A DNA stretch of 24,172 nucleotides, taken from the IMG/VR virus record IMGVR_UViG_3300018428_003605, positions 1 through 24,172 of that record; one strand, given 5' to 3'. Made by a program: the position numbers and the translations under genes. Positions 754 through 22,502 of the stretch are shown piece after piece. The notes under the pieces are model-generated. The model ran no database searches. It saw only the letters and a program-made list of their open reading frames with translations, and was not told where the DNA came from. This DNA is from a virus. The first letter of the stretch is position 1, and every line of letters begins with the position of its first letter.

Positions 754-1004
754 GATTGACAGATAGTGATAGGTATAAAAAAGATATAAAAAATTACACA
801 AATCTTATGAGAAATTTGGTAGACACAACCAAAAAAGAAAAATGTCAAAAACTTTTAAAAGAATTGCAAGCTGAGGCTTTTCAAATAGACAATGGACACA
901 ATAGCTCTTTAAACGGAATTATAAAACCAAAAGATTTAAGAATTAATATAGAACGTATGTCAGATGTGCGTAGAGAGTTGAACGAACTATTAGATAACAC
1001 TTAA
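750..1004 (+). CDS. Small charged protein of unknown function
   Basis: An 84-residue, lysine- and glutamate-rich protein that I do not recognise. It starts inside the stop of the cupin gene (ATGA), which supports coupled translation and a real gene. The middle part (KKEKCQKLLKELQAEAF) and the end (RRELNELLDN) look helical and amphipathic, so a small helical or coiled-coil protein is likely. There is no signal peptide or membrane segment. Its last 15 bases overlap the 3' end of the minus-strand fibre gene, so the two transcription units converge with no spacer for a terminator. Confidence 0.65.
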   Translation: MRLTDSDRYKKDIKNYTNLMRNLVDTTKKEKCQKLLKELQAEAFQIDNGHNSSLNGIIKPKDLRINIERMSDVRRELNELLDNT

Positions 1005-2600
1005 TCTTTTAATTACTATTCCACCTACCATTGATGGATGACTAGTACATTGATACCTATATGTACCGCTAATTGATTCTGGAATCCTCCAGTAAAGCAC
1101 ACCATCTGTTTTTTCTTGTGCGTTAGATCCTGTAGAAACAGTTCCATTTGTTGAAACATGAACAAGTCCTGTATTATAAGGAGTAGCAGTTGGATCTTGT
1201 ATTTCGAAAGGATGTCCACTTATTTCACTAAGATCAAATGCGATAGTAGTCCCTGCTAGTGCATATATGGTTGGGTTATTACCCGAGTAATGGCTGGCAA
1301 ACGTATATGCACTGGTTCCATCATTGTCAACTCTTAACATAGCTATAGCTGGTTCGTATATTAACCCAACATGTAATCCTGCTGTAGATACATCAGATAA
1401 TCCTGTAAATGCTGACGCACCGCCAGATGCAGTTGAATTAATAGTTAAAGTATCCGTGGTGTTATTAGTAGTTATTGTAATATTTGTGCAGGCAACTAAA
1501 GTTAAAGTATCAGTAGTTGCATCTGCTTCAATTGTATTTTGTCCAGATACAGCAATATTTGAAAAGGCATTTTGATTTTCTTCGCCAGCGCCAGCTACAA
1601 CAGCAGGAACCCAAGCACTTCCATTCCATTGTAGTACATCGTTTGTGCTAGGTGCTGAAGATGTGGTATCAACATCACTTAGTGCATCTATACTAATGCT
1701 ATTTAAATCACTTGCACTAACACTCGTAAGGTAAGATTGTAAATCACTTATTTGACTTTCTGTAACACTTAGCGCAGTCTGGTGTTGTGTAACAGAACTT
1801 TCAGTAATATTAGCATCAGGTACGTTTGCCCAAGTTACTGCCGCTGTCAAATCGTTTACTTCTGCTGTTAAAGCACCTATTCCTGCAGCTGTAGGTGGTG
1901 TAAATTTAAAAACACCTGTAGTATTGTCATATGTTATTGCACCATTACCACTTGCAGGGTTTTCTATACCAACACTCAAACTATCAAGTGCAAGTATAGC
2001 CGGTGTGTTGTTAAGATTGTTATAATCAAGATAGTAAGAACCATCGAAACCATCTAGAGTATCGGCATCAGTGCCTGCACCACCAGTTGTAGCATCTGCA
2101 CCTGGTGCCCATTTTCCGCCATCCCATTTTAATACCTGTCCAGTTGTAGGAGTAGAACTTGTAGTGTCAACATCTGATAAAAAGTCTATTGAAAAACTCT
2201 GTAGGTTTATTGTGACATTGTCTGTATCTGTTGCTATACTAGTGGCAATATTTGTTCCACCTAGTATGTTTAATGTGTCATTTATACTTGCTGCAGTTGT
2301 TGAACCTTCATCAGCTGTAATTGTATCAAACACATTTTGTGTAAGGCCTCCACCGGAACTATTAATGGTTAAGGTATCTCCTACAATTTCTGTAGTTACA
2401 TTGGTGCCACCTGCAACTGTAAGAGTATCACTAGCTATATTAGCTTCAGTGAATCCTGTGTCGGCATTAAATCTTGTAAATTTTGTTGCTACAGAGGCAG
2501 AAGATGTTACATTCCATGCAGTGCCGTCCCACTGCCATGTTGTTATTCCATCTGTAAATGTATCATTTAATTCTGGATTCGCTGGAAAATTTAATGCCAT
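990..2600 (-). CDS. Fibre-like virion structural protein with C-terminal cupredoxin-like domain
   Basis: This 536-residue protein is rich in Thr, Ser, Ala, Asn and Gly and has almost no cysteine, as expected of an extended phage fibre. The N-terminal module NDTFTDGITTWQWDGTAWNV is the short beta module that recurs in marine myovirus tail proteins. A related module occurs twice (LSDVDTTSSTPTTGQVLKWD and LSDVDTTSSAPSTNDVLQWN), showing internal duplication. The last ~110 residues differ: an SGHPFEI segment (His463) is followed by YQCTSHPSM near the end (Cys518, His521, Met524). A late Cys-x2-His-x2-Met with an upstream His is the type-1 copper ligand pattern of amicyanin-like cupredoxins. The start is supported by GAGG eight bases upstream of ATG. 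It lies 19 bases downstream of the protease gene. Structural role is confident; copper binding is inferred. Confidence 0.82.
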   Translation of the reverse strand: MALNFPANPELNDTFTDGITTWQWDGTAWNVTSSASVATKFTRFNADTGFTEANIASDTLTVAGGTNVTTEIVGDTLTINSSGGGLTQNVFDTITADEGSTTAASINDTLNILGGTNIATSIATDTDNVTINLQSFSIDFLSDVDTTSSTPTTGQVLKWDGGKWAPGADATTGGAGTDADTLDGFDGSYYLDYNNLNNTPAILALDSLSVGIENPASGNGAITYDNTTGVFKFTPPTAAGIGALTAEVNDLTAAVTWANVPDANITESSVTQHQTALSVTESQISDLQSYLTSVSASDLNSISIDALSDVDTTSSAPSTNDVLQWNGSAWVPAVVAGAGEENQNAFSNIAVSGQNTIEADATTDTLTLVACTNITITTNNTTDTLTINSTASGGASAFTGLSDVSTAGLHVGLIYEPAIAMLRVDNDGTSAYTFASHYSGNNPTIYALAGTTIAFDLSEISGHPFEIQDPTATPYNTGLVHVSTNGTVSTGSNAQEKTDGVLYWRIPESISGTYRYQCTSHPSMVGGIVIKRLSVI

Positions 2601-2619
2601 TATCTTACCTCAATTATAT

Positions 2620-4680
2620 TTAGTGTTTCTTAATTCGAATATCTAGTCCTCGTCTAACAACTATATTACGAACAATAGGTCGTAACCCTCTTTTGAATCG
2701 TCCATCAAAATATCCTTGATATAAAACTCTTGGTGATCCACCTTCTAAACTATTGTAGTCAGTCCAGTTACTAGTAGTAGGTGTGATTGATTCGACACCT
2801 TCGTAAAAATCTGAACCATTTTGTACATCCAGTCCTAAAACCCAATCTTTTAATTCTTTCCAAGTCCAGTCTCTGTTGTGTTCCATAACAGTTGCTAGAA
2901 ATCCACATGCTACAGGACAAGCTGCACTAGTACCTCCAAATGCACAGTCATATGCAGTTCCATAAGTAAAATCGGTATATGTATCTGGTCGAGATCCTTC
3001 GTTAGTATAACTTTTATTTGCCGCAAGTGTACCATCTCCGGCAGCGTAAACATCTATCTGTTCGCCTCGGTCACTGTAGTTTACTTTTCTTTCTAAATTT
3101 CCTGTAGCATAATCGTCATCAAGCGCACCAATATTAATACTTTTATATTCTATGCTTCCGTCTGGTTTAGTATGACGGCCCGCTTGTTGAGGAAATCCTG
3201 TCCTGTTTGTAGTTCCATAAACAGCAACACCAAATTCAAAAAGTTCTGAATCTGCCAAACTTCCGCCATTTGTAGTCGTTGTATAATTGTTCCAGTCAGG
3301 ATGATTTGATTTAACCACTTTTTGATTAGAATTACCTGCAGCACCTACAAAAATAACACCAGCATTAACCATTTCATCTAGTGCTGTAGTTAATGAATTA
3401 GTTTTCATTTCTCCCTTCCAACGACCTCCATCTCCAGTTACTCCCATATTGCTAATAAAATTAGGCTCAGATGTGTAAGATACATTTGAAGTTGCTCTAT
3501 GAGTATAATATAAGGTTGATGCATTACCAACATTACTATTAAATGCGTTAGGTACCTTGTCTGAACGATACCCCCAACTATTAGAACTCAGTGTTGGATC
3601 TTTTGCACCGTATGCAGGATTAACTGGTTTGTATTGATGGAATATTTTTTGTATATCAAATCCTTCTTCAATACCTGATCCATATGTGCCATATAAATCT
3701 ATCATCCATTTATTAGCATTGTATGCCCAACCTTGTGTTCTACCATATGTAAGAGCGCCACAGGGTGTTCCATGTTCTCCATCTAGTCCGGCTGGCTGTG
3801 TTGCAGGATCACCACTTACATTTAATCTTGTGTAGATAGAAGGAATATTAACAGTACCTGCATTTGCGAAAAGTGTACTTCTTTGCGAACTATTACTCCA
3901 CCAATTTTTTGCAACACTTTCTATAGGCACTATTGTTCCGTCCCATCTGGTTTCCAATCTGTTATCTGGATCAGCATCAAACCATTCTGGATCAATATAA
4001 TAAGGTCCGTCTAATACAACATCTAGCACATCACATGTTCCGTTGCCTGGTAAAACATTTCCTCCTTCATATCCTGCAGGTTTTTCAACTGGTGTTGTAC
4101 CGTCAATAGAAAGAACGCAGTTGTTTTGGAATTCAGGATGGGCTAACCAACAACCTTCATCAGCGACAATAACATCTATATCTTTTCCGGTACCATACTG
4201 GCTTATATTGACTTCTGGTACATCATTATCTGCAAGTCCTTGATCTACCCAAGGATCTAAAAACTGTTGGTGTCTGTATAACGAATAACTAGTACGATTA
4301 GAATCAGTAGAATCGGGTACCCCTGCAAGAGTATTAGAAGCTTCAAACTCTCTATAGTTTTTGATCGTGTCTGTATATCGATTTATTAGTGCAGGCCTGG
4401 TTGCTTTTAATTCGTCTTGTGGTGGTTTAAATTCTTCTGGATATTTAGAGTAATCGATATTAATAAATTTTACTCTATGATCTTTTTTAAGTTCTGCGGC
4501 TTCTTCTTCTGTAAGCAGATATGTTCCTCTAGTAGGACTATGTAATTTTTCATCGTTTACTTCAACTAATCTAATAGGTACAGCTTCGTAGACATTTCCG
4601 TCTGCTATTAATTCGGCATGAAGTTCTTGCCATTGTTGCTGGGTATGTGTACCAATTTGGTAAAATTTTTCTTCAGCCAT
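2620..4680 (-). CDS. Subtilisin-like serine protease (peptidase S8 family)
   Basis: All catalytic elements of a subtilase are present over 686 residues: Asp in DVIVADEG (Asp174), His in GEHGTPCGA (His303), the oxyanion Asn in FVGAAGN (Asn450) and Ser in GGTSAACPVA (Ser585). Residues 1-160 form an N-terminal region without a secretory signal peptide; part of it could act as an inhibitory propeptide, but that is not shown. The Asp-to-His spacing is long because of insertions around residues 190-295. The C-terminus is strongly basic (from GRFKRGLRP to the end). The gene sits between two fibre-like genes with gaps of 8 and 19 bases, so the enzyme is probably produced late. It could be a virion component that cuts host-surface proteins or a maturation protease; the sequence does not decide. 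GGTGA precedes the ATG. Confidence 0.92.
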   Translation of the reverse strand: MAEEKFYQIGTHTQQQWQELHAELIADGNVYEAVPIRLVEVNDEKLHSPTRGTYLLTEEEAAELKKDHRVKFINIDYSKYPEEFKPPQDELKATRPALINRYTDTIKNYREFEASNTLAGVPDSTDSNRTSYSLYRHQQFLDPWVDQGLADNDVPEVNISQYGTGKDIDVIVADEGCWLAHPEFQNNCVLSIDGTTPVEKPAGYEGGNVLPGNGTCDVLDVVLDGPYYIDPEWFDADPDNRLETRWDGTIVPIESVAKNWWSNSSQRSTLFANAGTVNIPSIYTRLNVSGDPATQPAGLDGEHGTPCGALTYGRTQGWAYNANKWMIDLYGTYGSGIEEGFDIQKIFHQYKPVNPAYGAKDPTLSSNSWGYRSDKVPNAFNSNVGNASTLYYTHRATSNVSYTSEPNFISNMGVTGDGGRWKGEMKTNSLTTALDEMVNAGVIFVGAAGNSNQKVVKSNHPDWNNYTTTTNGGSLADSELFEFGVAVYGTTNRTGFPQQAGRHTKPDGSIEYKSINIGALDDDYATGNLERKVNYSDRGEQIDVYAAGDGTLAANKSYTNEGSRPDTYTDFTYGTAYDCAFGGTSAACPVACGFLATVMEHNRDWTWKELKDWVLGLDVQNGSDFYEGVESITPTTSNWTDYNSLEGGSPRVLYQGYFDGRFKRGLRPIVRNIVVRRGLDIRIKKH

Positions 4681-4688
4681 TTTTCACC

Positions 4689-6107
4689 TTAAATTAAATT
4701 AGCCCAAGCACCGTTTTCATATCCTTGGAATTTATTTGTTGTAGTATTGTATATAATATCACCGTTTTGTGCAGAAAGTAAATCTCTTTCTGTTGTGGTA
4801 AATGTTGCCATTTTCAATGGTCCTTGGTTTACAATTACTCTAGTTCCTGCTGTTAGGAAAATTTCATTGTCGGAAAATACTTCAGGTATTCCTGAACCTT
4901 CAGACTGGATGGCGCCAGAAACAACTAAATCATTATTTACGAATAGTCCATTTTCAACAGTAAGATCACTACTCATTGTAACAGCTGGAGTGAATACAAT
5001 ACCGCTACTATCATCAGAATCGATAGTTGTTCCTGAAAATTCTATGCTACCAGTTGTACCACTGCCTGTAATTACAATATTACCTGCTCCCATTATACTA
5101 GTACCATTAATAGTTTTTATATTTGTTCCGCTTACCAATAATTCTTGTGCATCTGTAATTCCAAATCCTGCTATAGTTGTAGGCTTGTCTAATAGGTCGT
5201 TCCATGAATCTGTATCGCTCGCATCTTCAAAAGTAAAGCCACCAGCACCATCAGTGGTCAAAACTTGTCCATTTGTTCCGTCTGATATTCCTAAATCTAA
5301 AATAGAAGTTATATTTGGAAAGGGAGCAGTAGGCTGTACCCATTGTTGGCTGTCAGCGTCTTCTACATACACATACAACACACCACTTGTACTATTGTAC
5401 CAAATTGCACCGCTAGATGGAGATTCAGGTGCTGTATCTGATACACTTATACTAGCAGATCCTCCGCCTGATCCTGGTTGTGCAGTTGTAACTTCGTTAC
5501 CCATGCCAGTGTGGTAAGTACACCAGTAGTATAGTGTAGTAGGTGTTGTACTAAAAACAGTGATCTGCACACTTCTTTGTGTAGCGCCAGCAAATTTATC
5601 GTCGTATGTTTGTCTATCTACAATATCGCCGTCTAATTTATAAACAACTCCTAGTGTATATGTTGTTCCGCCTCCCAATACCCCATTGAGATTATCTGAA
5701 CTAAAGTTTAAAGGATGTTGATTGTTTGCTCCGCCTTCTGGATTAGGAAAATATTCATTTGTTTGATCATTTTGATTGAAAATATAGGTATAACCTACAA
5801 CAAAATTAAGTTTAGGCTTGTACACACCGTTAATAAAATATTTGTTTCCAGATTCAATTCCTTCGGGGTCTGTCCCAACTGTAACAGTGTATTCAACTAT
5901 TGCCACTCCGCTATCAGTTAGATTGTTTTGTAGATTTTGATTGGTTAATACTGTGAAACCGCCTTGGAAATCTCCGTCATATAGCCTAAGAGAATTACTG
6001 TCTTTATCAAAAAAGACTTCACCGCTGTTACCAAAATTTCTGTCCAAGAAATCATCTGTTCTTGGTATTATTCTTATTCTATCTACTACAGGTGCTGCTG
6101 ACGACAT
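4689..6107 (-). CDS. Virion structural protein with internal cupredoxin-like domain
   Basis: This 472-residue protein starts with RIRIIPRTDDFLDRNFG followed by a VFFDKDSNSLRLYDGD module and ends with GDIIYNTTTNKFQGYENG, both typical of T4-like marine phage structural proteins. Between residues ~70 and 210 is a separate domain with His131 (NNQHPLNF) and YYWCTYHTGMG (Cys196, His199, Met202). This again gives the Cys-x2-His-x2-Met pattern with an upstream His seen in amicyanin-type copper proteins. The rest is Gly/Ser/Thr-rich with short modules such as GAIWYNSTSGVLYVY. AGAGGA lies eight bases before the ATG. It is the first gene of a minus-strand unit facing the divergent promoter region, and a GATAAATA box lies 19-26 bases upstream. 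It is probably tail-fibre or baseplate-associated. Confidence 0.85.
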   Translation of the reverse strand: MSSAAPVVDRIRIIPRTDDFLDRNFGNSGEVFFDKDSNSLRLYDGDFQGGFTVLTNQNLQNNLTDSGVAIVEYTVTVGTDPEGIESGNKYFINGVYKPKLNFVVGYTYIFNQNDQTNEYFPNPEGGANNQHPLNFSSDNLNGVLGGGTTYTLGVVYKLDGDIVDRQTYDDKFAGATQRSVQITVFSTTPTTLYYWCTYHTGMGNEVTTAQPGSGGGSASISVSDTAPESPSSGAIWYNSTSGVLYVYVEDADSQQWVQPTAPFPNITSILDLGISDGTNGQVLTTDGAGGFTFEDASDTDSWNDLLDKPTTIAGFGITDAQELLVSGTNIKTINGTSIMGAGNIVITGSGTTGSIEFSGTTIDSDDSSGIVFTPAVTMSSDLTVENGLFVNNDLVVSGAIQSEGSGIPEVFSDNEIFLTAGTRVIVNQGPLKMATFTTTERDLLSAQNGDIIYNTTTNKFQGYENGAWANLI

Positions 6108-8489: not shown

Positions 8490-9144
8490 TATACTTAACA
8501 TTGATTATATATGGAGAATTAATGATTTAGATGTATATTATACCAATGATACTAACGGAGGAGGTGATTATTTTTTACCAGAGTATGCTAGTATTGTAAA
8601 AGAATGGTATGGACAAGTAGATAACATGCTAGAATGGTGTAGTGGGCCTGGTTTTATAGGTTATGGAATGCTTGCTACAGGTTTGTGTAAAAATATTTCT
8701 TTTTCTGAAATATTTAGACCAGCTATTAGTATGTTAAACAAAACTGCTATAGAAAATAACCTTTCTGTAGATATTTTTACTAATGATAGTCTAGATAATA
8801 TAGATAAACAATTCGATTTGGTGGTTGGAAATCCTCCTCACTGGGGGAGTGTTGCAGATGCCAAACACTCCTTGCAAAAATTTGGTAATTATGCACCAAT
8901 GAACGACAGATTGTTACAAGTATTAGTTGATGATGGTTGGAAAACTCATTTAAGTTTTTTTCAAAATATGAAAAAACTGCTAAAAAAAGATGGAAAAATA
9001 CTTTTACAAGAAAATAATACAGGTTCAAATCCTGAATTATTTTCACAATTAATCAAAGATACAGGACTAAAAATTCTTAGCACAGCACAAAGCGTAGAAT
9101 ATAAACCATTAAACATTTATTATTTAGAAGTAGGTCATGCATGA
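8479..9144 (+). CDS. Class I SAM-dependent methyltransferase with NPPH motif
   Basis: I place the start at the ATG at 8479, because GAGGA lies ten bases upstream; a longer reading from 8449 would add ten mostly hydrophobic residues and overlap the epimerase more. The 221-residue protein has a SAM-binding loop LEWCSGPGFIGYGML (residues 51-65), an acidic motif II residue in FSEIFRP, and LVVGNPPHWG (Asn118-His121). NPP[YFWH] motifs occur in enzymes that methylate amide or amino nitrogens, such as PrmC on glutamine or DNA adenine methyltransferases. No DNA recognition domain is visible, so a protein or small-molecule substrate is more likely. It lies between the heptose and oxygenase genes. The target is unknown. 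Confidence 0.85.
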   Translation: MDYDILNIDYIWRINDLDVYYTNDTNGGGDYFLPEYASIVKEWYGQVDNMLEWCSGPGFIGYGMLATGLCKNISFSEIFRPAISMLNKTAIENNLSVDIFTNDSLDNIDKQFDLVVGNPPHWGSVADAKHSLQKFGNYAPMNDRLLQVLVDDGWKTHLSFFQNMKKLLKKDGKILLQENNTGSNPELFSQLIKDTGLKILSTAQSVEYKPLNIYYLEVGHA

Positions 9145-9704
9145 GTATAGATGTAATAGATAATTGTATACCGCAGTTCTATCAAGACATGTTTGAATCT
9201 TTAGCCCTTGGTCGTACAGGAGGCAATGAAATCGAAAATAGTTTGCCTTGGCGTATAAAATATGAACAAACTGCTAAAAATAATGGAGTGTGTCCTATTA
9301 GTTTCAAACATATTTTAAAAAGTGATGCTGAACTATCTAACCATTTAGCTGATTTTGCAAAGATACCTCAAATTATTACTGCAAATCTTAATTATACATT
9401 GGCTGACTTAATGTATGCAAGAGTATTTCTCACTTTACCTTATAAAACAGAACTAAAATACCATTCGCCTCACACAGATTTGAACTATCCTCACACTAGT
9501 TTAATATATTATGTAAACGATAGTGACGGTGACACTGTATTTTTTGAACCAGATATGAAAACAATTTTCCGGAAAGTTTCTCCTAAAAAAGGAAGGTGTG
9601 TATTATTCAATGGTTTAATACCTCACGGTGCTGGAATTCCGTCAAAAGGAGCCAGATGTATTGTAAATTACAATATACAGATAGGAATGAAAAATGAGTT
9701 TTGA
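9141..9704 (+). CDS. 2OG-Fe(II) oxygenase-like protein, canonical HxD
   Basis: This 187-residue protein has the double-stranded beta-helix signature: YHSPHTDLNYPHTSLIYYV supplies His111 and Asp113, GLIPHGAG supplies the distal His162, and ARCIVNYNI supplies Arg172, which would hold the 2-oxoglutarate carboxylate. The family uses O2 and 2-oxoglutarate to hydroxylate proteins, nucleic acids or small molecules. It resembles prolyl-hydroxylase-type phage oxygenases. The gene starts in an ATGA overlap with the methyltransferase and overlaps the next oxygenase by 11 bases. All four key residues are present, so activity is plausible; the substrate is not known. Confidence 0.85.
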   Translation: MSIDVIDNCIPQFYQDMFESLALGRTGGNEIENSLPWRIKYEQTAKNNGVCPISFKHILKSDAELSNHLADFAKIPQIITANLNYTLADLMYARVFLTLPYKTELKYHSPHTDLNYPHTSLIYYVNDSDGDTVFFEPDMKTIFRKVSPKKGRCVLFNGLIPHGAGIPSKGARCIVNYNIQIGMKNEF

Positions 9705-10329
9705 AGATAATGTTATGGAAGTGCCATTCTTTTCTCAAGAAGAATGCCAAGAAATAAAGGAATGGGCATTTGATTTTGAGAAAAAATTAATACAATCAGG
9801 ATTCGAAGATTACAAACCAGCACCAGAATTTTTTGATAATGTAACTACTTCTAACTATCATCATTATAATTTCTTTCATTTTTTCCCACATCATGCAGAA
9901 AGACTTGTAGACTGTCTTTATCATGTAAACAAAGATTTAGAATGGCCTATTATATGTCAGGCTTGGGTGAACATTTATAGAAAAGGACAGGGTATAAATT
10001 GGCATAACCATCAAGGAAGAATGGGCAAAAGTTTTAGTTGCAATGTTTTCATTGACGGTGACACAAAACCAGGTGTTACTTATAAACCATTTAACAGTAA
10101 GGGCATAACAAGAGAAAACAAAATAGGATTTATGCATATATTTCCTTGTGAACTTTTTCATTATGTGCAGCCAAGCGAATCAGATACTCCAAGAATTACT
10201 CTAGGAATGACTGTTCACAGCAATTCGGATATAAATATTAACATTATTAATCAATTAGCTTTTAATAGTAAGCAATATCAAGATTCGATAATACTAACTA
10301 AGGAACATTATGAGCAATCCTCATCCTAA
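9694..10329 (+). CDS. 2OG-Fe(II) oxygenase-like protein, HxH variant
   Basis: The 211-residue protein shows QAWVNIYRKGQGINWHNHQG, then SFSCNVFIDG, a distal His in ELFHYVQPSE (His156) and Arg167 in TPRITLGM. This layout fits the phage 2OG-FeII_Oxy_5/TIGR02466-type group. The first iron ligand pair is His104-x-His106 instead of His-x-Asp, so the metal site would be three histidines if His106 is a ligand. The N-terminal 80 residues are helical and rich in aromatic and histidine residues (NYHHYNFFHFFPHH). GGAA precedes the ATG. It overlaps both neighbours in the plus-strand unit. Family assignment is good; catalysis is uncertain. Confidence 0.78.
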   Translation: MSFEDNVMEVPFFSQEECQEIKEWAFDFEKKLIQSGFEDYKPAPEFFDNVTTSNYHHYNFFHFFPHHAERLVDCLYHVNKDLEWPIICQAWVNIYRKGQGINWHNHQGRMGKSFSCNVFIDGDTKPGVTYKPFNSKGITRENKIGFMHIFPCELFHYVQPSESDTPRITLGMTVHSNSDININIINQLAFNSKQYQDSIILTKEHYEQSSS

Positions 10330-10651
10330 AGTTCGTTGTAGCCATATATTATTAAGCCACGAAGATGCAATAGAATCTTCACACAGTAGGCAGCTATATT
10401 TTGCTGTATGGGATGCCAAGCAAATTATAGGTGAATTAATTCGTGGCGGTATAACTTGGGGTACGGCTGTAAAGGAACACAGTGCTTGTCCGCACAGTTG
10501 GTATCGTGATGGTGATTTAGGATGGTTTGATATAAATGATGGAGTTGTACCGGAGCTCTATTATAGTGTGCTTGCAGCACCCAAAGACCAATTACTAGAA
10601 GAGCCGATACAAACTCCATATGGAATACATATTATTGTAAGAACTGGTTAG
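10310..10651 (+). CDS. Parvulin-type peptidyl-prolyl cis-trans isomerase
   Basis: This compact 113-residue protein matches a stand-alone parvulin domain. Visible are KVRCSHILLS (His12), KEHSACPHSW (Cys60), DGDLGWF, the VVPE segment and QTPYGIHIIV (His107). These correspond to the conserved His, Cys and His of E. coli PpiC and Pin1. The reaction is cis-trans isomerisation of peptide bonds before proline. There is no signal peptide, so it acts in the cytoplasm. It closes the plus-strand unit, after two oxygenases, and AAGGAA lies before its ATG. A folding or maturation role for proline-containing virion proteins is a reasonable inference. It overlaps the oppositely oriented next gene by 4 bases. 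Confidence 0.9.
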   Translation: MSNPHPKVRCSHILLSHEDAIESSHSRQLYFAVWDAKQIIGELIRGGITWGTAVKEHSACPHSWYRDGDLGWFDINDGVVPELYYSVLAAPKDQLLEEPIQTPYGIHIIVRTG

Positions 10652-10977
10652 TCTAGCTCGCCGTTAATTGTAAAGTTTGTTAAAACACCTGATGCTGGAG
10701 TGTTTCTGTTAGAAACATTTACAACACCATCTGGTGTATCAGGATTCATAGACAAATTATATTTATTTTGAATAATTTCGTCGTCTTGCCCAATTTCATA
10801 TCCTATTTCTACAACTTCACAACCTTTGTCTGGATGATATGAATTTACCCAGGCTTGTGCTAGTTCTTGTGTTGGAAATTTTCTAATTTCCTCGTATCCA
10901 TCACCGTCAGGATCCCATGAGTGCCAGACTTTTACATTAGCATGTGTCGGATGTGGTTTTTTAACTGCGTATGGCAT
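10648..10977 (-). CDS. Protein of unknown function
   Basis: A 109-residue protein that I do not recognise. The first half contains a compact region with VKVWHSWDPDGDGYEEIRKF and TQELAQAWVNSYHPD, which looks like a small alpha/beta fold; DPDGDGYEE resembles a Ca2+-binding loop but has no partner helix-loop-helix. The second half is polar with many Asn, Thr and Pro, probably extended. AGGAG seven bases before the ATG is a strong ribosome binding site. It is the last gene of the long minus-strand unit, and its end overlaps the parvulin gene tail to tail. Confidence 0.65.
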   Translation of the reverse strand: MPYAVKKPHPTHANVKVWHSWDPDGDGYEEIRKFPTQELAQAWVNSYHPDKGCEVVEIGYEIGQDDEIIQNKYNLSMNPDTPDGVVNVSNRNTPASGVLTNFTINGELD

Positions 10978-10986
10978 TAATATCTC

Positions 10987-11544
10987 CTATAATTCTTCTG
11001 CAAAATCTTGCAAAGAGTTAAAAACATAAGTTCTATTTTTTATGTTTTTATATATGTATTTATCCAAATCCTTCTCAGTTTCAAGACCGTGGCCTGTTCT
11101 AACTAGTACAGGTCTAGCTCCTACTTTTTTTGCGGCTTTTAAATCTGTTAATTTATCACCAACATAAAAGCTATTTTTCCATCTCAAACCTGGGATATCT
11201 TTTTGACACATTTTAAACATACCTGTATTTGGTTTTGCATATATGTCTTTTTTACTACTAGTTTCGCTATAGTATATCCCATCAATGCTTTCACAACCAG
11301 CTTGACCTAACAACCAAAGCATATGTTCGTGAATTGCGTTAACATCTTCAGCAGTCATTAATCCTTTGGCAATGCCACCTTGATTTGTTATAATAACAAT
11401 GCCATAACCTTTGTGTCTTAGATTAGCAATAGCTTCTAAACTACCAGGTATAGGTTCAAAGTCTCTCGGATGTGTACAGTAATCTCCAAGATCAGTATTA
11501 ATTACGCCGTCCCTATCTAGCCCTATAAAGACTTTACTCGTCAT
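10987..11544 (-). CDS. gmhB: HAD-family phosphatase, D-glycero-D-manno-heptose 1,7-bisphosphate 7-phosphatase-like
   Basis: The 185-residue protein carries the GmhB-type HAD motif FIGLDRDGVIN (nucleophile Asp10, general acid Asp12), motif II in IVIITNQGGIAKG, a lysine in IYAKPNTGMF and motif IV in FYVGDKLTDLKAAK. GmhB removes the 7-phosphate between the HldE kinase and adenylyltransferase steps, exactly the reaction missing from the plus-strand unit. E. coli GmhB has a cysteine-rich zinc loop before the KPxxGM motif; here that loop is shortened to ETSSKKDIY and has no cysteine. Such loop-less forms belong to the same HAD subfamily, and histidinol-phosphate phosphatase is the main alternative, but the neighbours favour heptose. 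It overlaps the upstream oxygenase by 11 bases. Confidence 0.85.
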   Translation of the reverse strand: MTSKVFIGLDRDGVINTDLGDYCTHPRDFEPIPGSLEAIANLRHKGYGIVIITNQGGIAKGLMTAEDVNAIHEHMLWLLGQAGCESIDGIYYSETSSKKDIYAKPNTGMFKMCQKDIPGLRWKNSFYVGDKLTDLKAAKKVGARPVLVRTGHGLETEKDLDKYIYKNIKNRTYVFNSLQDFAEEL

Positions 11545-12127
11545 ATGTATACCATCCTGTGATGATGTACTTTAGTCCTTTGTAAATAGGGTTGCCTCTA
11601 TGCGGATGCGTAAAGGCTGTAGGAAAAATTACTAATTTGCCTTCTTCAGGAGCAATGCGTTTACCTTGATATAAGAATTCTGTCTCACCTCCTTCTTCCA
11701 CATTATTAAGATATACCATATAATTTACAACTCTACAGGCACTACTTTTACAGGCCGCTTCTGCATGCCAAGCATGATATCCTTGGTGTGGACTTGTGCG
11801 TTGCACATTCATTCCTTTTGCACTATGTTGTTTGCTATGCTGAAGTATGCTATATTTTTGCATGTATTCATTAGTATATATTTCTTTGAGCCTTTCATAA
11901 AAATAATCACAAATCTTGTAATCATAGTGATATACGCCTTGTGTATGAGCCCAATCAAATACTATACGGTCATCAGTAACAAATCCATGCCCTTGTCTAT
12001 TAGCATTAATAACTCGATTGTCGTCTAGTGTTTCAAAATGCCTGATTACTTCTTGGCAAAAATCTTTATCAAAAGCATTAGGATATTCTTCTATTCCTGA
12101 ATAATCTTCGTATGTTTTCTCTACCAT
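11534..12127 (-). CDS. 2OG-Fe(II) oxygenase-like protein, HxE
   Basis: In this 197-residue protein YHAWHAEAA provides His121 and Glu123, and FPTAFTHPHRGNP provides the distal His174. The cosubstrate position reads KGLKYIITGWY, with Lys186 where most relatives have Arg. The strand MVYLNNVEEGGETEF is characteristic of prolyl-4-hydroxylase-like members (YLN..EEGGET). The acidic ligand is Glu instead of Asp, a known but rarer variation. A preceding region rich in His and Lys (LQHSKQHSAKG) is unusual. It starts near the end of the SGNH gene with a 7-base overlap. This is the clearest P4H-like member of the cluster; the target residue is unknown. Confidence 0.85.
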   Translation of the reverse strand: MVEKTYEDYSGIEEYPNAFDKDFCQEVIRHFETLDDNRVINANRQGHGFVTDDRIVFDWAHTQGVYHYDYKICDYFYERLKEIYTNEYMQKYSILQHSKQHSAKGMNVQRTSPHQGYHAWHAEAACKSSACRVVNYMVYLNNVEEGGETEFLYQGKRIAPEEGKLVIFPTAFTHPHRGNPIYKGLKYIITGWYTYDE

Positions 12128-12924
12128 GCTTTCTCCTTTACATATGGTATATATCTCTTTGCAATAGCATCATGCACATCTGTTGAATAATGTTCTCCAT
12201 CTACTGTATCTATTTTTATATATTTTTTTAAATAATTTTCAGCATCTTTAGGTGCGATCTTAGCATCTAGTTTTGTATAATAATCTTTAGTTTCTTTTGG
12301 TATATAACATCTATCATTAATATTCCATATATACATATTTGCATTATTTTTTGAACATAAATTGTCGCACATAGTCATATATGTGAAATAGTCTTCCTGT
12401 TCAAGATTAGTGTTACTATAATGCCACATTTGCATATACAAATGAGAAGATCTTCTAATATCGGGTTCTGTTTTCCAAACTTGTGTGTCTCGTATATAAG
12501 GAAAATGATCGTAATCGCTTACATCTGGTTTTAAATATGTTTCTAAATATTTGTTGTTAGGTGAAAGTGCAATACTATATCTGTCTATTGTATCTGTAGA
12601 AAAGTTTTCATCTATAAAAAAGTCTAACGGAAATATTTTCTTTGCATCTAAGTCAGGATTTATTGCAATAGGAAATCTACCCCAGTATGTGCTTTGAACA
12701 AAAACTTCTGTTATATCTTTGTATTTTTTAAAGGCATATGATAAAAATCTAGGAAATGCTCTATTTCCTGCTCCTGCACTTGCCATAATTACAACTTGCT
12801 GACCAGTATTTTTACTGTATATTTCTGCATAATTATTATCACGCCATACGTTAGGCTCGTTGGGCGGCGCATCTTCTCTATAACCCATTGTATGACTACA
12901 ACCTACAAATAATGTTCTACCCAT
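12121..12924 (-). CDS. SGNH/GDSL hydrolase-like protein
   Basis: I choose the ATG at 12924, because GAGG lies six bases upstream and it gives the typical start MGRTLFVGCSHTMG; an in-frame ATG at 12942 would only lengthen the overlap with the previous gene. The 267-residue protein has the N-terminal FVGCSHT in place of GDS, with Ser10 as candidate nucleophile, SAGAGNRAF as candidate Gly/Asn block, and a C-terminal DGEHYSTDVHDAIAKRY with histidines placed as in block V. Such enzymes are esterases, often removing or adding acyl groups on glycans. GCS instead of GDS makes activity uncertain. A second SGNH-like protein lies at 15716-16411. Confidence 0.65.
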   Translation of the reverse strand: MGRTLFVGCSHTMGYREDAPPNEPNVWRDNNYAEIYSKNTGQQVVIMASAGAGNRAFPRFLSYAFKKYKDITEVFVQSTYWGRFPIAINPDLDAKKIFPLDFFIDENFSTDTIDRYSIALSPNNKYLETYLKPDVSDYDHFPYIRDTQVWKTEPDIRRSSHLYMQMWHYSNTNLEQEDYFTYMTMCDNLCSKNNANMYIWNINDRCYIPKETKDYYTKLDAKIAPKDAENYLKKYIKIDTVDGEHYSTDVHDAIAKRYIPYVKEKAW

Positions 12925-13468
12925 ATGTTGCCTCAAAGTCAAAAACCATTACTCTGCGCTCATCAATAGTAGGATACGCTCCGTGCCAAATACGTGCATC
13001 CATAATTAACAACAATCCTTTTTTAGGTTGCCACCAATTCACATGTGTTTCGCCTTTTTCATCTTGTAATACTGCGTAGAAGGCCCCTTCATCGTTAGGC
13101 TGATCTTCAATATCGTCAAAGTATAGAACTGCTGTACAACCTGTACGACCTTTAGTATGATTGTGCATACCTTTCCAGCCGCCTGGAAAATAACGGATAC
13201 TCCAAGTTTGTATATGATCGTGTATTGTACACGGCACGTCACCTTCTGCTAGTATTGTGTTAGTTTTATCAATTATAAAATCAGCAACACCCTTTGTTTC
13301 TTCTAAGGTGTGTGGTATTTGATAACCGTTAACAGTTGTACTTCTACCAGGCTCTACAAGGTTAGGATGGTCGCTATCAAATAAATGTTCATAGTCTTTC
13401 CACATAGGAACATGTGTTTCTACTATCCACTGATTATTTGCAATGTAAAGTGTATCATTCATTTGCAT
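12917..13468 (-). CDS. 2OG-Fe(II) oxygenase-like protein, HxH variant
   Basis: The 183-residue protein has SIRYFPGGWKGMHNHTKGR with His102-x-His104, then CTAVLYFDDI, the distal His162 in ARIWHGAYP and Arg171/Arg172 in DERRVMVFDFEA. The fold order fits the oxygenase-like group, and the iron motif again has His in place of Asp. MQM at the start offers two ATG codons (13468 and 13462); neither has a strong Shine-Dalgarno sequence, so translation may depend on coupling to the overlapping upstream gene. A conserved Asp/Glu-rich stretch (DDIEDQPNDEGAF) separates the two halves. Substrate unknown. Confidence 0.78.
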   Translation of the reverse strand: MQMNDTLYIANNQWIVETHVPMWKDYEHLFDSDHPNLVEPGRSTTVNGYQIPHTLEETKGVADFIIDKTNTILAEGDVPCTIHDHIQTWSIRYFPGGWKGMHNHTKGRTGCTAVLYFDDIEDQPNDEGAFYAVLQDEKGETHVNWWQPKKGLLLIMDARIWHGAYPTIDERRVMVFDFEATYG

Positions 13469-14069
13469 TTGCAGGTCTTATAACAAAGTTTGCGGCAATA
13501 GTTGCACGTCTGCTGTCTGTTTTGTTAGGTAATACATAGTGTGATACCCAACTAGGAAACAATACAAGTGTGCCTTTTTGTAAAGGTGGTGTAATATGTT
13601 GGTAGTTGTAGGCATTAAAGATCCTATCCATGCCACTACTACGTATTGTTGGAAAATTAGGACATTCTAGTACCAACTGCCCGCCTACGTCTTTCTCTTG
13701 ATCTGGAAAATCTAACACATAAACTGCACTTAAACTGCGTCCTGGAAAAGCATGATCATGAGGTTCTTGATAGTCACCCTTTTTATATTTGTTAAACCAC
13801 ATCTCGTCACAGAATACACTATATGGCACTTGCGGGTCAAGTTTTTCAAGGTATTTGTTTATATGAGGCTGTACAGCATCAAACCATATTTTCCAAGGCA
13901 GTTTATCATTGTTTTCATTTCTTATACTGCTCTTTGTATTAGCCATAGTCCACAAGCTATCTGAAATATAAGATTCATCTTCAATATATGGATCCCATTC
14001 TTTTAAAATATCATCAGCTTCAGTTAGAACATTTGTATAAAAATGTGTTTCCCAAAACTTTACGTGCAT
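13455..14069 (-). CDS. 2OG-Fe(II) oxygenase-like protein, HxH variant (2OG-FeII_Oxy_5-like)
   Basis: The start at 14069 forms TAATG with the stop of the upstream gene, so I prefer it over an ATG nine bases earlier (14078). The 204-residue protein contains DEMWFNKYKKGDYQEPHDHA (His104 and His106), SLSAVYVLDFP, LVLFPSWVSHYVLPN (His177) and RRATIAANFVI. The sequence FPSW.SH.V.PN is the hallmark of the TIGR02466/2OG-FeII_Oxy_5 group. It lies in a chain of four oxygenase genes joined by overlaps. With HDH the second position is Asp but the third is His, so which residue binds iron needs a structure. Family assignment is strong. Confidence 0.83.
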   Translation of the reverse strand: MHVKFWETHFYTNVLTEADDILKEWDPYIEDESYISDSLWTMANTKSSIRNENNDKLPWKIWFDAVQPHINKYLEKLDPQVPYSVFCDEMWFNKYKKGDYQEPHDHAFPGRSLSAVYVLDFPDQEKDVGGQLVLECPNFPTIRSSGMDRIFNAYNYQHITPPLQKGTLVLFPSWVSHYVLPNKTDSRRATIAANFVIRPANANE

Positions 14070-14572
14070 TACACCCATCCATTCTGTTCAGCATTAAAGA
14101 AAAATACTTGTGTTAGTCTGCCCGTTTTAGGAGAATCACCAAATCCTGCAAGTAGGCTTGCATGATCCATATTTCCATCATACAGCACAAGTCTATTATA
14201 AACATTACCAATAACATTTACAAGATCGTAACCTCCATCTTTTTCTAAATATAAACCTGTTCCTGATTCTGTAGGTGCATCTGGATTAAGGTATAAAACA
14301 CCTGCCCAATCACATCCGTCTTTGTGTATCCAAGTTTCAGCACCTTCGTAACATAGTTGAAAGCAAAAACTGTCCATAACAAATTCAGTTATACTTACAT
14401 TTAATATTTCTTGGAACCTATGATGGATAAACATCTGATAATCATCATCACATGCAAGACTACGCATACCAGGAAATTCTCCTGTAGTAGGATAATCTAA
14501 CTGGATTGCTTGTTCTCTAACAAGATCAGGTGCAGGTAAAAAGTTGTCTATAACTATTGATGTTTTCTTCAT
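14069..14572 (-). CDS. 2OG-Fe(II) oxygenase-like protein, HxD (DUF6445-like)
   Basis: This 167-residue protein begins with VIDNFLPAPDLVREQAIQLD, a typical start of small phage oxygenases. ETWIHKDGCDWAGVLYLNPD gives His83 and Asp85; RLVLYDGNMDHAS gives the distal His137; and GRLTQVFFFN gives Arg152. The core YLNPDAPTESGTGLY and the MDHAS...GFGD segment match the DUF6445-type family as I remember it. All canonical residues are present. The gene's ATG overlaps the stop of the upstream gene in TAATG, and its own stop does the same with the next one. Confidence 0.83.
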   Translation of the reverse strand: MKKTSIVIDNFLPAPDLVREQAIQLDYPTTGEFPGMRSLACDDDYQMFIHHRFQEILNVSITEFVMDSFCFQLCYEGAETWIHKDGCDWAGVLYLNPDAPTESGTGLYLEKDGGYDLVNVIGNVYNRLVLYDGNMDHASLLAGFGDSPKTGRLTQVFFFNAEQNGWV

Positions 14573-15090
14573 TACATAAAATCCATATAAATATTGCCAC
14601 TTATAGTAGTGCCTGTATTTCCAGGCATTACAAAGTGTTCTATAAAACTAGGAAAGATAACTATATCTCCTTGCTTACATTCTGGTCGAAAATCTAAAGG
14701 AAATTCTGGAACACTACTACCAAACTGATTTTGAACATCTTTAAATAACGGACTCATAAAAACAGTTTTGCCAGTTTCAACTGACTCATAGATTACAAAA
14801 CTCCAACTACTACGTGGATGTATGTGTATGTCTTGCCAGTCATTCTTTTCATATTTGTTGCGCCATATTTCTCCAAATCTTGGATTTTGACCAATTAGAT
14901 CTGGACCTAAGTTGCGTCCAAATACTTCTATTAGGTATTCGTATGTGGTTTCAGATATTTCGTGTTGTTGTCCTAGTGTGCTGTTAGTTTTACTTAGCCA
15001 AATCTTTTCATAAGGGGCTTCGCCTATGTCAATACGATCTAAGTCAACTTGATCGATAAAAAACGGAACATGGAATAGATTATGCTTCAA
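14572..15090 (-). CDS. 2OG-Fe(II) oxygenase-like protein, HxH variant without cosubstrate arginine
   Basis: The 172-residue protein shares EIWRNKYEKNDWQDIHIHPR and IVIFPSFIEHFVMPGN with the 2OG-FeII_Oxy_5 group, giving His89, His91 and His152. Where relatives carry Arg about ten residues after the distal His, this protein reads TGTTISGNIYM, without a basic residue. It therefore may not bind 2-oxoglutarate in the usual way and could be an inactive or altered member. It starts four bases inside the upstream oxygenase gene (ATGA-type overlap) and ends in TAATG with the next. Relation to the family is clear; catalytic competence is doubtful. Confidence 0.78.
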   Translation of the reverse strand: MKHNLFHVPFFIDQVDLDRIDIGEAPYEKIWLSKTNSTLGQQHEISETTYEYLIEVFGRNLGPDLIGQNPRFGEIWRNKYEKNDWQDIHIHPRSSWSFVIYESVETGKTVFMSPLFKDVQNQFGSSVPEFPLDFRPECKQGDIVIFPSFIEHFVMPGNTGTTISGNIYMDFM

Positions 15091-15722
15091 CCAAATCTCC
15101 TTGCTGGCAAAGGCACACTGCGCATAGTCTTATATACTAGTGTTGCACGTAGTCCTTTGTATTTTTCGTTAGGTGGTAACCCATGATGTGGAATATTACC
15201 TTTGAACAAGAAAATACGTCCTGGCTTTGGATATACTTTCTTCCATTCGCCGTCAAGTTTAATAATTGTTTCTCCGCCCCATTCTTCTTTCCACTCTCTG
15301 TTTACATAATAGATCCAACTTAATCCATTGTCACACTGACAGTCTGTGTGTTCTGTAGTGTTGTGTATAAACTGCTGGCCGTTAACAAGGATTTCACCTA
15401 TATCTAACTCAAATGGTATAAGACTAGTAACAGCATCATATATCATATTCCAGCAACTATCATGTGCATTGTTACTATGTGGCGGATATATCTGTTGTTT
15501 GAATGCAGGAACTTCAGGCCAATCTGGATCTGCTCCTACGTCATACAACGGATCTTCGTGGTAGTTACTAGTATGACCATATGTCCAATTATATCCGTTA
15601 AATACAGTTTTATGAACGTGATCAATAACATATTGTGGGAACATATCATCAATCACAATCATTTGATCTTTTGCTAGATCAAATTCAGATAAGTCTTTTG
15701 CTTCTTTGTCGTTAATCAACAT
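15087..15722 (-). CDS. 2OG-Fe(II) oxygenase-like protein, canonical HxD
   Basis: A 211-residue protein whose core reads QQFIHNTTEHTDCQC (His125, Asp127), LSWIYYVNREW, EEWGGETII, PGRIFLFKGNIPHHGLPP (distal His179 or His180) and LRATLVYKT (Arg192). WGGET with the following strand is a prolyl-hydroxylase-like hallmark. The N-terminus (MIVIDDMFPQYVIDHVHKTV) matches other phage oxygenases. It is the most canonical member of the minus-strand group and the first in transcription order among four consecutive oxygenases. It overlaps the SGNH gene by 7 bases. Substrate not known. Confidence 0.86.
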   Translation of the reverse strand: MLINDKEAKDLSEFDLAKDQMIVIDDMFPQYVIDHVHKTVFNGYNWTYGHTSNYHEDPLYDVGADPDWPEVPAFKQQIYPPHSNNAHDSCWNMIYDAVTSLIPFELDIGEILVNGQQFIHNTTEHTDCQCDNGLSWIYYVNREWKEEWGGETIIKLDGEWKKVYPKPGRIFLFKGNIPHHGLPPNEKYKGLRATLVYKTMRSVPLPARRFG

Positions 15723-16411
15723 TTAATAAATTCCTTTTTAAAACTATCTGAAAGATTAAGTTCTTTACTTTCTGTAGATAGACATTGGTATAATTTGTTT
15801 GCAAAAATCTTATGGTTTTCTTTACTCATATGATTTTGCCTCGGATCTACTCCGTAATGTTTGTACCATTTTTTCCTTTCGATGTCATTAATAAATTCTA
15901 AGTTTGCTATGTCTGACATTGTTCCGTTCACTTCGGGACATGGTTCAAAACCTGGTATTATTTTCCACTGATTACTAGCTGTAATGTTTAGTATTGTATA
16001 TAATCCATAAAAACATTGTTGATATAAAATACTGTCAGACTGCGGGTGATGTAAGCAACTCATGTATTCTTTTACTGCTTGTTTTGTTTTTTTATTAATT
16101 ACGTCATTAAATTGACTATCTAAGATATTATGGTAATTTCCATATGTTGGATCGTTTTCTAAAAACCATCTCCTACTCGGATCTGTTAGTTGTACTAGAA
16201 CATAATCAGTTTCATGAATTTTTTGTGCATCATCAACAACAGTTTTAAATATGTATTCATTTGCATATCCATAACCAGAGCGGTATTCTATAGTATCACA
16301 ACCTAGCAACTTAGCCAATTGTACCGACCATATAGAAAAATTATTTTCTAAAGGAGGCAATTCTTCATTATACGGAGCTGAAAAACTGTCTCCAAAAATC
16401 CATAGCTTCAT
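15716..16411 (-). CDS. SGNH/GDSL hydrolase-like protein
   Basis: The 231-residue protein begins MKLWIFGDSFSAPY, with GDS at residues 7-9 as the nucleophile block. EYRSGYGYANEYIF may be the Gly/Asn block, VLVQLTDPSRRW follows a hydrophobic strand, and DPRQNHMSKENHKIFANKLY near the C-terminus carries the expected Asp/His pair. Such proteins are esterases or acyl-group transferases acting on carbohydrates. The start shares a base with the carbamoyltransferase stop (TAATG), placing it among the sugar-modifying genes. It differs from the protein at 12121-12924 in having an intact GDS. The specific substrate is unknown. Confidence 0.75.
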   Translation of the reverse strand: MKLWIFGDSFSAPYNEELPPLENNFSIWSVQLAKLLGCDTIEYRSGYGYANEYIFKTVVDDAQKIHETDYVLVQLTDPSRRWFLENDPTYGNYHNILDSQFNDVINKKTKQAVKEYMSCLHHPQSDSILYQQCFYGLYTILNITASNQWKIIPGFEPCPEVNGTMSDIANLEFINDIERKKWYKHYGVDPRQNHMSKENHKIFANKLYQCLSTESKELNLSDSFKKEFIKC

Positions 16412-20909: not shown

Positions 20910-20917
20910 TATAACTC

Positions 20918-21697: not shown

Positions 21698-21708
21698 CTA
21701 ATTTTTCC

Positions 21709-22485: not shown

Positions 22486-22502
22486 GTAATTTCTATCCTC
22501 TA

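What the first reader, a model, noticed from the sequence alone, without database searches (positions are those of the whole stretch)
990..6107. Two tail structural proteins with amicyanin-like copper signatures
Both the 536-residue protein (His463, Cys518, His521, Met524) and the 472-residue protein (His131, Cys196, His199, Met202) contain an upstream His followed by Cys-x2-His-x2-Met in an aromatic strand (YRYQCTSHPSM, YYWCTYHTGM). This is the ligand set and spacing of type-1 copper in amicyanin. In one case the domain is at the fibre end, in the other in the middle. A copper-binding or electron-accepting fibre would be unusual; copper could also serve as structural metal or to sense the cell surface.
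Basis: partly seen in the sequence, partly recalled or inferred. Interest (0 to 1): 0.7.

Follow-up and report, generated by a model that had tools for sequence, protein, structure and literature searches.

The report
Copper-type domains in phage tails
Two tail proteins of an aquatic virus of bacteria carry a protein module built like the blue-copper proteins that cells use to pass electrons, with all four copper-holding residues in place; the same module turns up, unnamed, in many viruses of ocean bacteria, but nobody has yet shown here that it holds copper or what it does.

Summary
AlphaFold2 predicts confident cupredoxin folds for both domains (pLDDT 93.8 and 97.0). Foldseek's best PDB hits are amicyanin (E 7.6e-6) and rusticyanin (E 2.1e-3). 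The two domains join one family through a third, compact type (hhalign E 2.6e-25 and 3.9e-17). With profiles in which the ligand columns were masked, 180 of 204 distinct domains keep all four ligands, 2 keep three, none keep two, and 22 have lost the site together while keeping scaffold residues. That all-or-none pattern is what a metal site would give. The domain occurs in 353 of 50,697 phage records, 345 of them cyanophages by name, usually in 'baseplate wedge tail fiber connector' or tail-fibre genes, and in secreted bacterial proteins. My paper searches found no description of it in phage tails. Copper binding, ligand distances and function are untested. Most likely it is a copper-loaded cupredoxin recruited as a rigid display/attachment module of the tail; a redox role is possible but unshown.

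The parts
990..2600 (-). P0001, 536-aa tail protein related to the cyanophage 'baseplate wedge tail fiber protein connector' (phrog_677); carries cupredoxin domain A at its C-terminus
   Evidence: ORF; phrog_677 E 1.2e-66, residues 207-531
993..1400 (-). Cupredoxin domain A, residues 401-536
   Evidence: AF2 pLDDT 93.8, pTM 0.88; Foldseek amicyanin 2idq E 7.6e-6; VIA Z 11.2 to Cu nitrite reductase 3wi9; Pfam Copper-bind below cut-off
1212..1214 (-). Codon of His463 (first ligand, SGHPFEI)
   Evidence: invariant in 44 of 44 rows of A1
1029..1049 (-). Codons of Cys518, His521, Met524 (CTSHPSM loop)
   Evidence: invariant in 44 of 44 rows of A1
4689..6107 (-). P0002, 472-aa tail protein; residues 68-206 match phrog_708 (baseplate wedge subunit), other parts match tail-fibre families
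   Evidence: ORF; phrog_708 E 3.6e-17
5487..5909 (-). Cupredoxin domain B, residues 67-207, with long inserts between the first His and Cys
   Evidence: AF2 pLDDT 97.0, pTM 0.91; Foldseek rusticyanin 1rcy E 2.1e-3, probability 1.00; VIA Z 8.5 to 2dv6
5715..5717 (-). Codon of His131 (first ligand, NQHPLNF)
   Evidence: His in 92 of 94 matches, Asn in one, one cut
5502..5522 (-). Codons of Cys196, His199, Met202 (CTYHTGM loop)
   Evidence: present in 94 of 94 matches
2620..4680 (-). Context: 686-aa subtilisin-like protease (Peptidase_S8) between the two tail genes; the profile of its phage family ends in a cupredoxin domain, this protein does not have it
   Evidence: Pfam PF00082 E 2.4e-16; phrog_9158, residues 4-641 on profile 5-540 of 696; compact-type domains match phrog_9158 in 20 of 20 rows, the first row at positions 593-695; the masked-profile census shows only domains A and B in the window among complete non-redundant rows

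Best explanation
Both domains are real cupredoxin modules with an intact mononuclear type-1 copper site (His, Cys, His, Met), built into baseplate/tail-fibre proteins of a T4-related aquatic phage. I think the apo-domain folds in the infected cell and takes up copper there or after lysis. The metal then locks the loops at one end of the beta-sandwich, making a rigid, exposed module on the tail that helps attachment or tail assembly. Shown here: sequence, predicted fold, family, conservation and all-or-none loss of the ligands, and tail-gene context. Inferred: copper occupancy (about 0.75), and a structural/interaction role rather than electron transfer (about 0.45). The confidence given is for 'copper-binding cupredoxin module of the tail', not for the role.
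For: Fold. Sequence link to copper proteins: the compact-type profile A4 finds 37 PDB sequences at E<=10, of which 33 are copper proteins, best E 0.002. NCBIfam amicyanin, halocyanin, rusticyanin or plastocyanin models match 6, 4, 2 and 1 of 20 members at E<=1. Pfam Copper-bind matches 34 of 44 A-type and 7 of 20 compact-type members, all at E<=1. One family. Selection on the site: of 204 domains found with ligand-masked profiles, 180 keep 4 ligands, 2 keep 3, 0 keep 2, 4 keep 1, 18 keep 0. In the 22 ligand-less rows the scaffold F, G, T, G, G stay in 22, 22, 21, 20, 20 of 22, while first His, Cys, second His stay in 0 of 22 and Met in 4. The tree needs 3 changes, or 2 without one very long branch. 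One variant is Gln for Met (L184), the axial ligand of stellacyanin (recalled). Tail context. Phages of Synechococcus, Prochlorococcus, Pelagibacter, Methylophilales and an actinobacterium keep the four residues. Extracellular context in cells: 44 of 46 bacterial loci carry C-x2-H-x2-M in the ORF, several in proteins with lipoprotein-like starts.
Against: No experiment shows copper. Ligand distances could not be measured. The window's own domains do not reach any curated copper family's cut-off (A: Copper-bind 12.9 bits against 21.2; B: Copper-bind matched none of 45 A3 members). Foldseek TM-scores are moderate (about 0.4-0.5) with large rmsd, and B's Z of 8.5 is only just above the level the tool calls common. 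The profile of B alone found no copper protein in the PDB, and A1 against A3 directly gave only 20% probability; the link runs through the compact type. Sampling of loci used peptide patterns that often held one ligand residue, which inflates the share of intact sites. Cupredoxin folds without copper exist, e.g. SufI (recalled), itself in the match list.
Confidence: 0.7

Rival explanations
1. Working redox centre: the copper cycles between Cu(II) and Cu(I) and its state changes how the tail fibre or baseplate behaves at the cell surface, so that attachment or triggering follows the redox state of the host surface.
For: The weak axial ligand Met is kept as strictly as the strong ones (180 of 204; only one Gln variant), which a purely structural metal would not obviously need. 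Folds match electron-transfer proteins. Adsorption of the myovirus P-HM2 is inferred to fall to about zero in the dark while that of the podovirus P-SSP7 is not (PMC7112961, passages), and P-HM2 has an intact domain while P-SSP7 has none.
Against: The light comparison is two phages of different morphology, hence confounded. The domain also occurs in phages of non-photosynthetic hosts. No redox partner is known.
Confidence: 0.2
2. Copper-free fold: the module is a cupredoxin-shaped beta-sandwich used for sugar or protein binding, as Ig-like domains are in other phages, and the four residues are kept for packing or for another ligand.
For: Window domains score below curated copper cut-offs. A clade of 20 domains keeps the scaffold without ligands, so the fold has a use without metal. 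SufI in the match list is a cupredoxin fold that needs no copper (recalled).
Against: The four residues are lost together rather than one at a time (180/2/0/4/18), and scaffold residues are kept when they go. His, Cys, His and Met meeting in the type-1 topology has no other known use (knowledge of the family).
Confidence: 0.18
3. Metal lure ('copper version' of the Ferrojan horse idea): tail-bound copper is recognised by host outer-membrane copper or metallophore receptors and so promotes attachment.
For: A comparable proposal exists for iron held by HxH motifs in tail fibres of marine phages (PMC11705849, passages). The domain is frequent in phages of open-water bacteria.
Against: A type-1 site is buried and binds copper very tightly (knowledge of the family), a poor bait. 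No receptor is known. The domain is spread over different tail proteins and positions, unlike one receptor-binding tip.
Confidence: 0.07
4. Chance motif or artefact of a first-stage reading.
For: None beyond the shortness of the motif.
Against: Predicted folds, invariant ligands and a wide family.
Confidence: 0.02

Closest known systems
Amicyanin (type-1 copper protein; NCBIfam TIGR02657)
   Same: Cupredoxin fold (Foldseek best hit of domain A) and C-x2-H-x2-M loop; 6 of 20 compact-type phage domains match its model weakly
   Different: Amicyanin is a free periplasmic carrier paired with methylamine dehydrogenase (recalled). Here it is a domain inside a tail protein; the first-His-to-Cys distance is 55 or 65, not 39 (recalled); where a bit score was shown, for a cellular relative, it was 14.8 against a cut-off of 110.2
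Rusticyanin and the cupredoxin domains of Cu nitrite reductase and two-domain laccases
   Same: Nearest folds of domain B and, for nitrite reductase, of domain A by VIA
   Different: Longer Cys-His-Met loops in rusticyanin and laccases (recalled) and enzymatic or respiratory context; no type-2 or trinuclear copper ligands were looked for in the phage domains
Phage-encoded plastocyanin (petE) of cyanophages
   Same: A cupredoxin gene in the same phages; Syn9 has both
   Different: petE is a separate auxiliary photosynthesis gene. The tail module is not; one record labels a small 168-aa tail-cluster protein with the module 'PetE' (S-SCSM2R)
Ig-like and other display domains of phage virions; HxH iron sites in tail fibres
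   Same: Beta-sandwich modules placed at varied positions in tail proteins (Ig-like: recalled); metal in tail fibres has precedent (PMC11705849, passages)
   Different: Different fold family and ligand chemistry: a thiolate type-1 site instead of histidine pairs
PF25489 At5g54830-like domain (Pfam)
   Same: Matches 11 of 20 compact-type phage domains (best E 0.00038) and 6 of the 10 cellular relatives scanned, the latter all below its cut-off of 27 bits
   Different: Named from a plant protein; Pfam's description gives no function; whether the plant domain holds copper was not tested here. It did not match the window's domains A or B at E<=1

Membership tests
Cupredoxin superfamily with type-1 copper site | Greek-key beta-sandwich cupredoxin fold | tested here: met
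   Confident models; top Foldseek and VIA matches are cupredoxin-fold proteins. Prediction, not an experimental structure
Cupredoxin superfamily with type-1 copper site | Ligands His + Cys-xn-His-xm-Met, the last three in the loop between the last two strands | tested here: met
   Residues against strand positions; HMMER aligns Cys and second His, and in one plastocyanin (weakly) the first His, to the copper proteins' own
Cupredoxin superfamily with type-1 copper site | Ligand side chains within bonding distance | not testable with these tools
   No coordinates returned by the structure tool
Cupredoxin superfamily with type-1 copper site | Binds copper; about 600 nm absorption, narrow EPR hyperfine splitting | not testable with these tools
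   Needs purified protein
Pfam PF00127 Copper-bind as curated | Score at or above the gathering score (21.2 bits) | tested here: not met
   Domain A 12.9 bits, E 0.16; domain B no match
Amicyanin (TIGR02657) | Stand-alone secreted electron carrier; amicyanin first-His-to-Cys spacing | tested here: not met
   Domain is part of 536- and 472-aa tail proteins; spacing 55 and 65 against 39 (recalled)
phrog_677 baseplate wedge tail fiber protein connector (P0001) | Match over most of the profile, including its C-terminal cupredoxin part | tested here: met
   E 1.2e-66, profile 88-409 of 412; the compact-type domains match its profile in 20 of 20 rows, for the first row at positions 310-408
phrog_708 baseplate wedge subunit (P0002) | Match over most of the profile | tested here: not met
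   Only residues 68-206 match positions 555-683 of 1383, i.e. the shared domain alone

The most novel reading that the evidence does not exclude
Many cyanophages and other open-water phages carry redox-active type-1 copper centres in the baseplate/tail-fibre apparatus, and the oxidation state of that copper gates attachment or tail triggering; in cyanophages this could contribute to the unexplained light-dependence of adsorption. The phage virion would then be a redox-sensing cuproprotein assembly.
Probability: 0.1. Interest if true: 0.88.

Novelty: new variant of a known kind. Interest (0 to 1): 0.62.

Why it matters
If the site binds copper, a large share of cultured cyanophages (345 records named as Synechococcus, Prochlorococcus or cyanophage) build a copper protein into the tail. 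That would make copper a virion component worth measuring and would give a testable candidate for surface sensing or tail stability in marine phages. It would also explain a piece of 'baseplate wedge tail fiber connector' and unnamed tail genes that annotation leaves blank. It is unlikely to matter for the ocean's copper budget: even 1e7 virions per mL with 100 sites each is about 2 pM, against roughly nanomolar dissolved copper (my own estimate from recalled values).

Tried and rejected
Chance motif: rejected by conservation. A direct sequence link of B to copper proteins: PDB profile searches with A2 and A3 found none and A1-A3 hhalign gave 20% probability; the link was made through the compact type instead. 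The superoxide-dismutase copper-chaperone hits of P0001 (E 0.036-0.045) run over residues 281-464, mostly fibre sequence before the domain, and do not cover the Cys-His-Met loop; disregarded. A photosynthesis-only explanation: weakened by intact domains in Pelagibacter, Methylophilales and actinobacterial phages. A simple match of domain presence to light-dependent adsorption: only two phages could be compared, of different morphology, and only 45 kb of P-HM2 was scanned; no conclusion drawn. One primary paper on dark infection was sought by DOI and not held; Jia et al. 2010 is known to me only from a reference list. Literature: eight searches for cupredoxin, plastocyanin-like or copper domains with phage, cyanophage, baseplate or tail terms listed nothing on this; the library is open-access only. 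I saw passages of PMC7112961, PMC9229316, PMC2984593, PMC5082946 and PMC11705849 and only listings of the rest.

Rows dropped before the ligand count: 711 raw profile hits became 400 non-overlapping, 227 after 90% redundancy removal, and 204 that cover all four ligand columns. Of the 23 dropped, 11 look ligand-less, 2 look intact (-CHM, -CHQ) and 10 are cut off. One search's spacing table picked the last His before Cys, which in A-type domains is another conserved His (His81 of the domain), so its 37 is not the ligand distance; the ligand is His63 of the domain, shared by all types.
Full report
WHAT WAS CLAIMED AND WHAT IS THERE. P0001 is a member of phrog_677, 'baseplate wedge tail fiber protein connector' (E 1.2e-66). 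P0002 is a patchwork whose residues 68-206 match part of phrog_708, a baseplate wedge subunit, and whose other parts match tail-fibre families. Between them lies a subtilisin-like protease. The window is an IMG/VR virus record, 24,172 bases in all. Its protease and P0001 have their nearest listed phage relatives among Synechococcus and Prochlorococcus phages, so it is most likely a T4-related aquatic phage; its host is unknown.

FOLD. Alignments of window domains with viral-contig relatives (A1, 44 sequences; A3, 45 sequences) were folded. Domain A: mean pLDDT 93.8, pTM 0.88. Domain B: 97.0 and 0.91. Foldseek against the PDB put amicyanin first for A (E 7.6e-6, with 315 matches at E<=0.001; the 50 shown are blue copper proteins, laccases and other multicopper oxidases, and Cu nitrite reductase) and rusticyanin first for B (E 2.1e-3, probability 1.00; no match at or under 0.001). 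VIA-align gave Z 11.2, rmsd 3.6 over 120 residues for A to Cu nitrite reductase 3wi9, and Z 8.5, rmsd 2.5 over 96 residues for B to 2dv6. Foldseek TM-scores are only 0.4-0.5; both phage domains carry extra loops. In both models Cys ends the second-last strand, His and Met lie in the next loop and the first His lies just before an earlier strand, as in type-1 copper proteins.

SEQUENCE LINK. Curated copper families are not reached at their cut-offs by the window's domains (12.9 bits against 21.2; none). Below the cut-offs the signal is consistent. Copper-bind matches 34 of 44 A-type members at E<=1. The compact-type profile A4 finds 37 PDB sequences at E<=10, of which 33 are copper proteins. 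NCBIfam amicyanin, halocyanin, rusticyanin and plastocyanin models match 6, 4, 2 and 1 of 20 compact members. Profile-profile comparison joins A and B to the compact type (99.7%, E 2.6e-25; 98.9%, E 3.9e-17), although A and B compared directly give only 20%.

IS THE SITE UNDER SELECTION? I masked the four ligand columns in three profiles (A, B, compact) and searched the ORFs of 410 loci plus the window (4,839 distinct ORFs). After removing overlaps and 90% redundancy, 227 domains remained; 204 cover all four columns. Matches to H,C,H,M: four in 180, three in 2 (N,C,H,M and H,C,H,Q), two in 0, one in 4, none in 18. All 180 have exact C-x2-H-x2-M; their median pairwise identity is 36%, the lowest 13%. 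In the 22 ligand-less rows, scaffold F, G, T, G, G are kept in 22, 22, 21, 20, 20 of 22, while first His, Cys and second His are kept in none and Met in 4. The residues beside the ligands (Tyr two before Cys, Pro after the first His) go as well (2 and 1 of 22). Twenty of the 22 form one clade, the second such domain of the Syn9 gp103 type of baseplate protein; the tree needs three changes, two if one very long branch is left out. So the fold can live without the site, but the four residues come and go together. That is the best evidence here that they form one site. Caveat: loci were gathered by peptide patterns that often contained one ligand residue, so 180 of 204 overstates the intact share.

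DISTRIBUTION. The P-SSM2 domain finds 353 of 50,697 phage records at E<=0.01: 271 Synechococcus, 55 Cyanophage, 19 Prochlorococcus, 4 Marine, 2 Pelagibacter, 1 uncultured, 1 Actinomycetia. A T4-type neck protein finds 2,376 records, among them 622 Escherichia, 377 Synechococcus and 61 Cyanophage. By names alone the domain is found in about three quarters as many Synechococcus and Cyanophage records (326 against 438; not matched record by record), and no Escherichia, Klebsiella or Vibrio record is among the domain hits. Copies per record range from 2 to 9 profile matches in nine records searched, some of them pieces of one domain. Melnitz (Methylophilales), Mosig and Baldr (Pelagibacter), DSL-LC01 (actinobacterium), P-GSP1 (podovirus), S-BM3, S-SCSM2R and P-HM2 all have a domain with the four residues; in P-SSP7 none was found. 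In bacterial genomes a scan with ten compact-type sequences gave 46 loci, 44 with C-x2-H-x2-M. Several are in proteins with lipoprotein-like starts, and a group of OCS116/PS1/Rhodobiaceae proteins holds two motifs each. At least one bacterial locus looks like phage DNA (L455, whose protein begins like the phage protease). The module is thus an extracellular cupredoxin of aquatic bacteria that phages share, or the reverse; direction not tested.

MECHANISM. Shown: family, predicted fold, ligand conservation, tail context. Inferred: the domain binds copper (about 0.75); the copper mainly stiffens a display/attachment module (about 0.45), against a redox role (about 0.2), a copper-free role (about 0.18), or a copper lure (about 0.07). 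The strict keeping of the weak Met ligand speaks somewhat for copper chemistry rather than mere stiffening, but is not decisive. A link to light-dependent adsorption is only a hypothesis. P-HM2 has an intact domain and is inferred to adsorb hardly at all in the dark; P-SSP7 lacks the domain and is not so limited (PMC7112961 passages). But that is two phages of different build, and phages of non-photosynthetic hosts carry the domain too.

NOVELTY. The fold family is well known. Its use in phage tails was not described in anything my eight relevant searches listed in an open-access library. Individual database labels come close: one tail-cluster protein is called PetE. BFVD models of cyanophage tail proteins match the domain. 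I file it as a new variant of a known kind.

Noticed in passing
window 9141-15722: Seven genes matching 2OG-Fe(II) oxygenase families (one below the cut-off) and one DUF6445 gene within 6.6 kb, interleaved with a few others, and a carbamoyltransferase at 16411-18216; an unusually dense set, function unknown.
   Followed up: partly
window 20100-22524 (-): Three successive proteins of about 260-270 aa, alike and rich in Cys and Gly (the first matches phrog_4205); possible disulphide-rich or metal-binding tail proteins.
   Followed up: no
window 2620-4680 (-): Subtilisin-like protease encoded between the two cupredoxin-bearing tail genes; relatives in cyanophages lie next to, or are fused with, cupredoxin domains (S-SCSM2R, S-BM3, phrog_9158).
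   Followed up: partly
Syn9 record NC_008296.2 about 81912-82121 (in L249) and 20 viral-contig rows: A clade of baseplate domains with the cupredoxin scaffold but no ligands; in Syn9 gp103 it follows a copy with C-x2-H-x2-M: a natural ligand-free control.
   Followed up: yes
L184 ORF at base 3, residues 37-174: Domain with Gln in place of the axial Met (H,C,H,Q), the arrangement known from stellacyanin (recalled).
   Followed up: partly
L426, L428, L430-L433, L435, L436, L439-L443, L448: Marine alphaproteobacterial proteins of about 417-449 codons with similar N-terminal stretches, holding two C-x2-H-x2-M motifs each; possible two-copper surface proteins.
   Followed up: no
L429 5038-6303: Muricauda lipoprotein joining Lipoprotein_15 repeats (PF03640) to a C-terminal domain of this family; may point to an extracellular redox role.
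   Followed up: no
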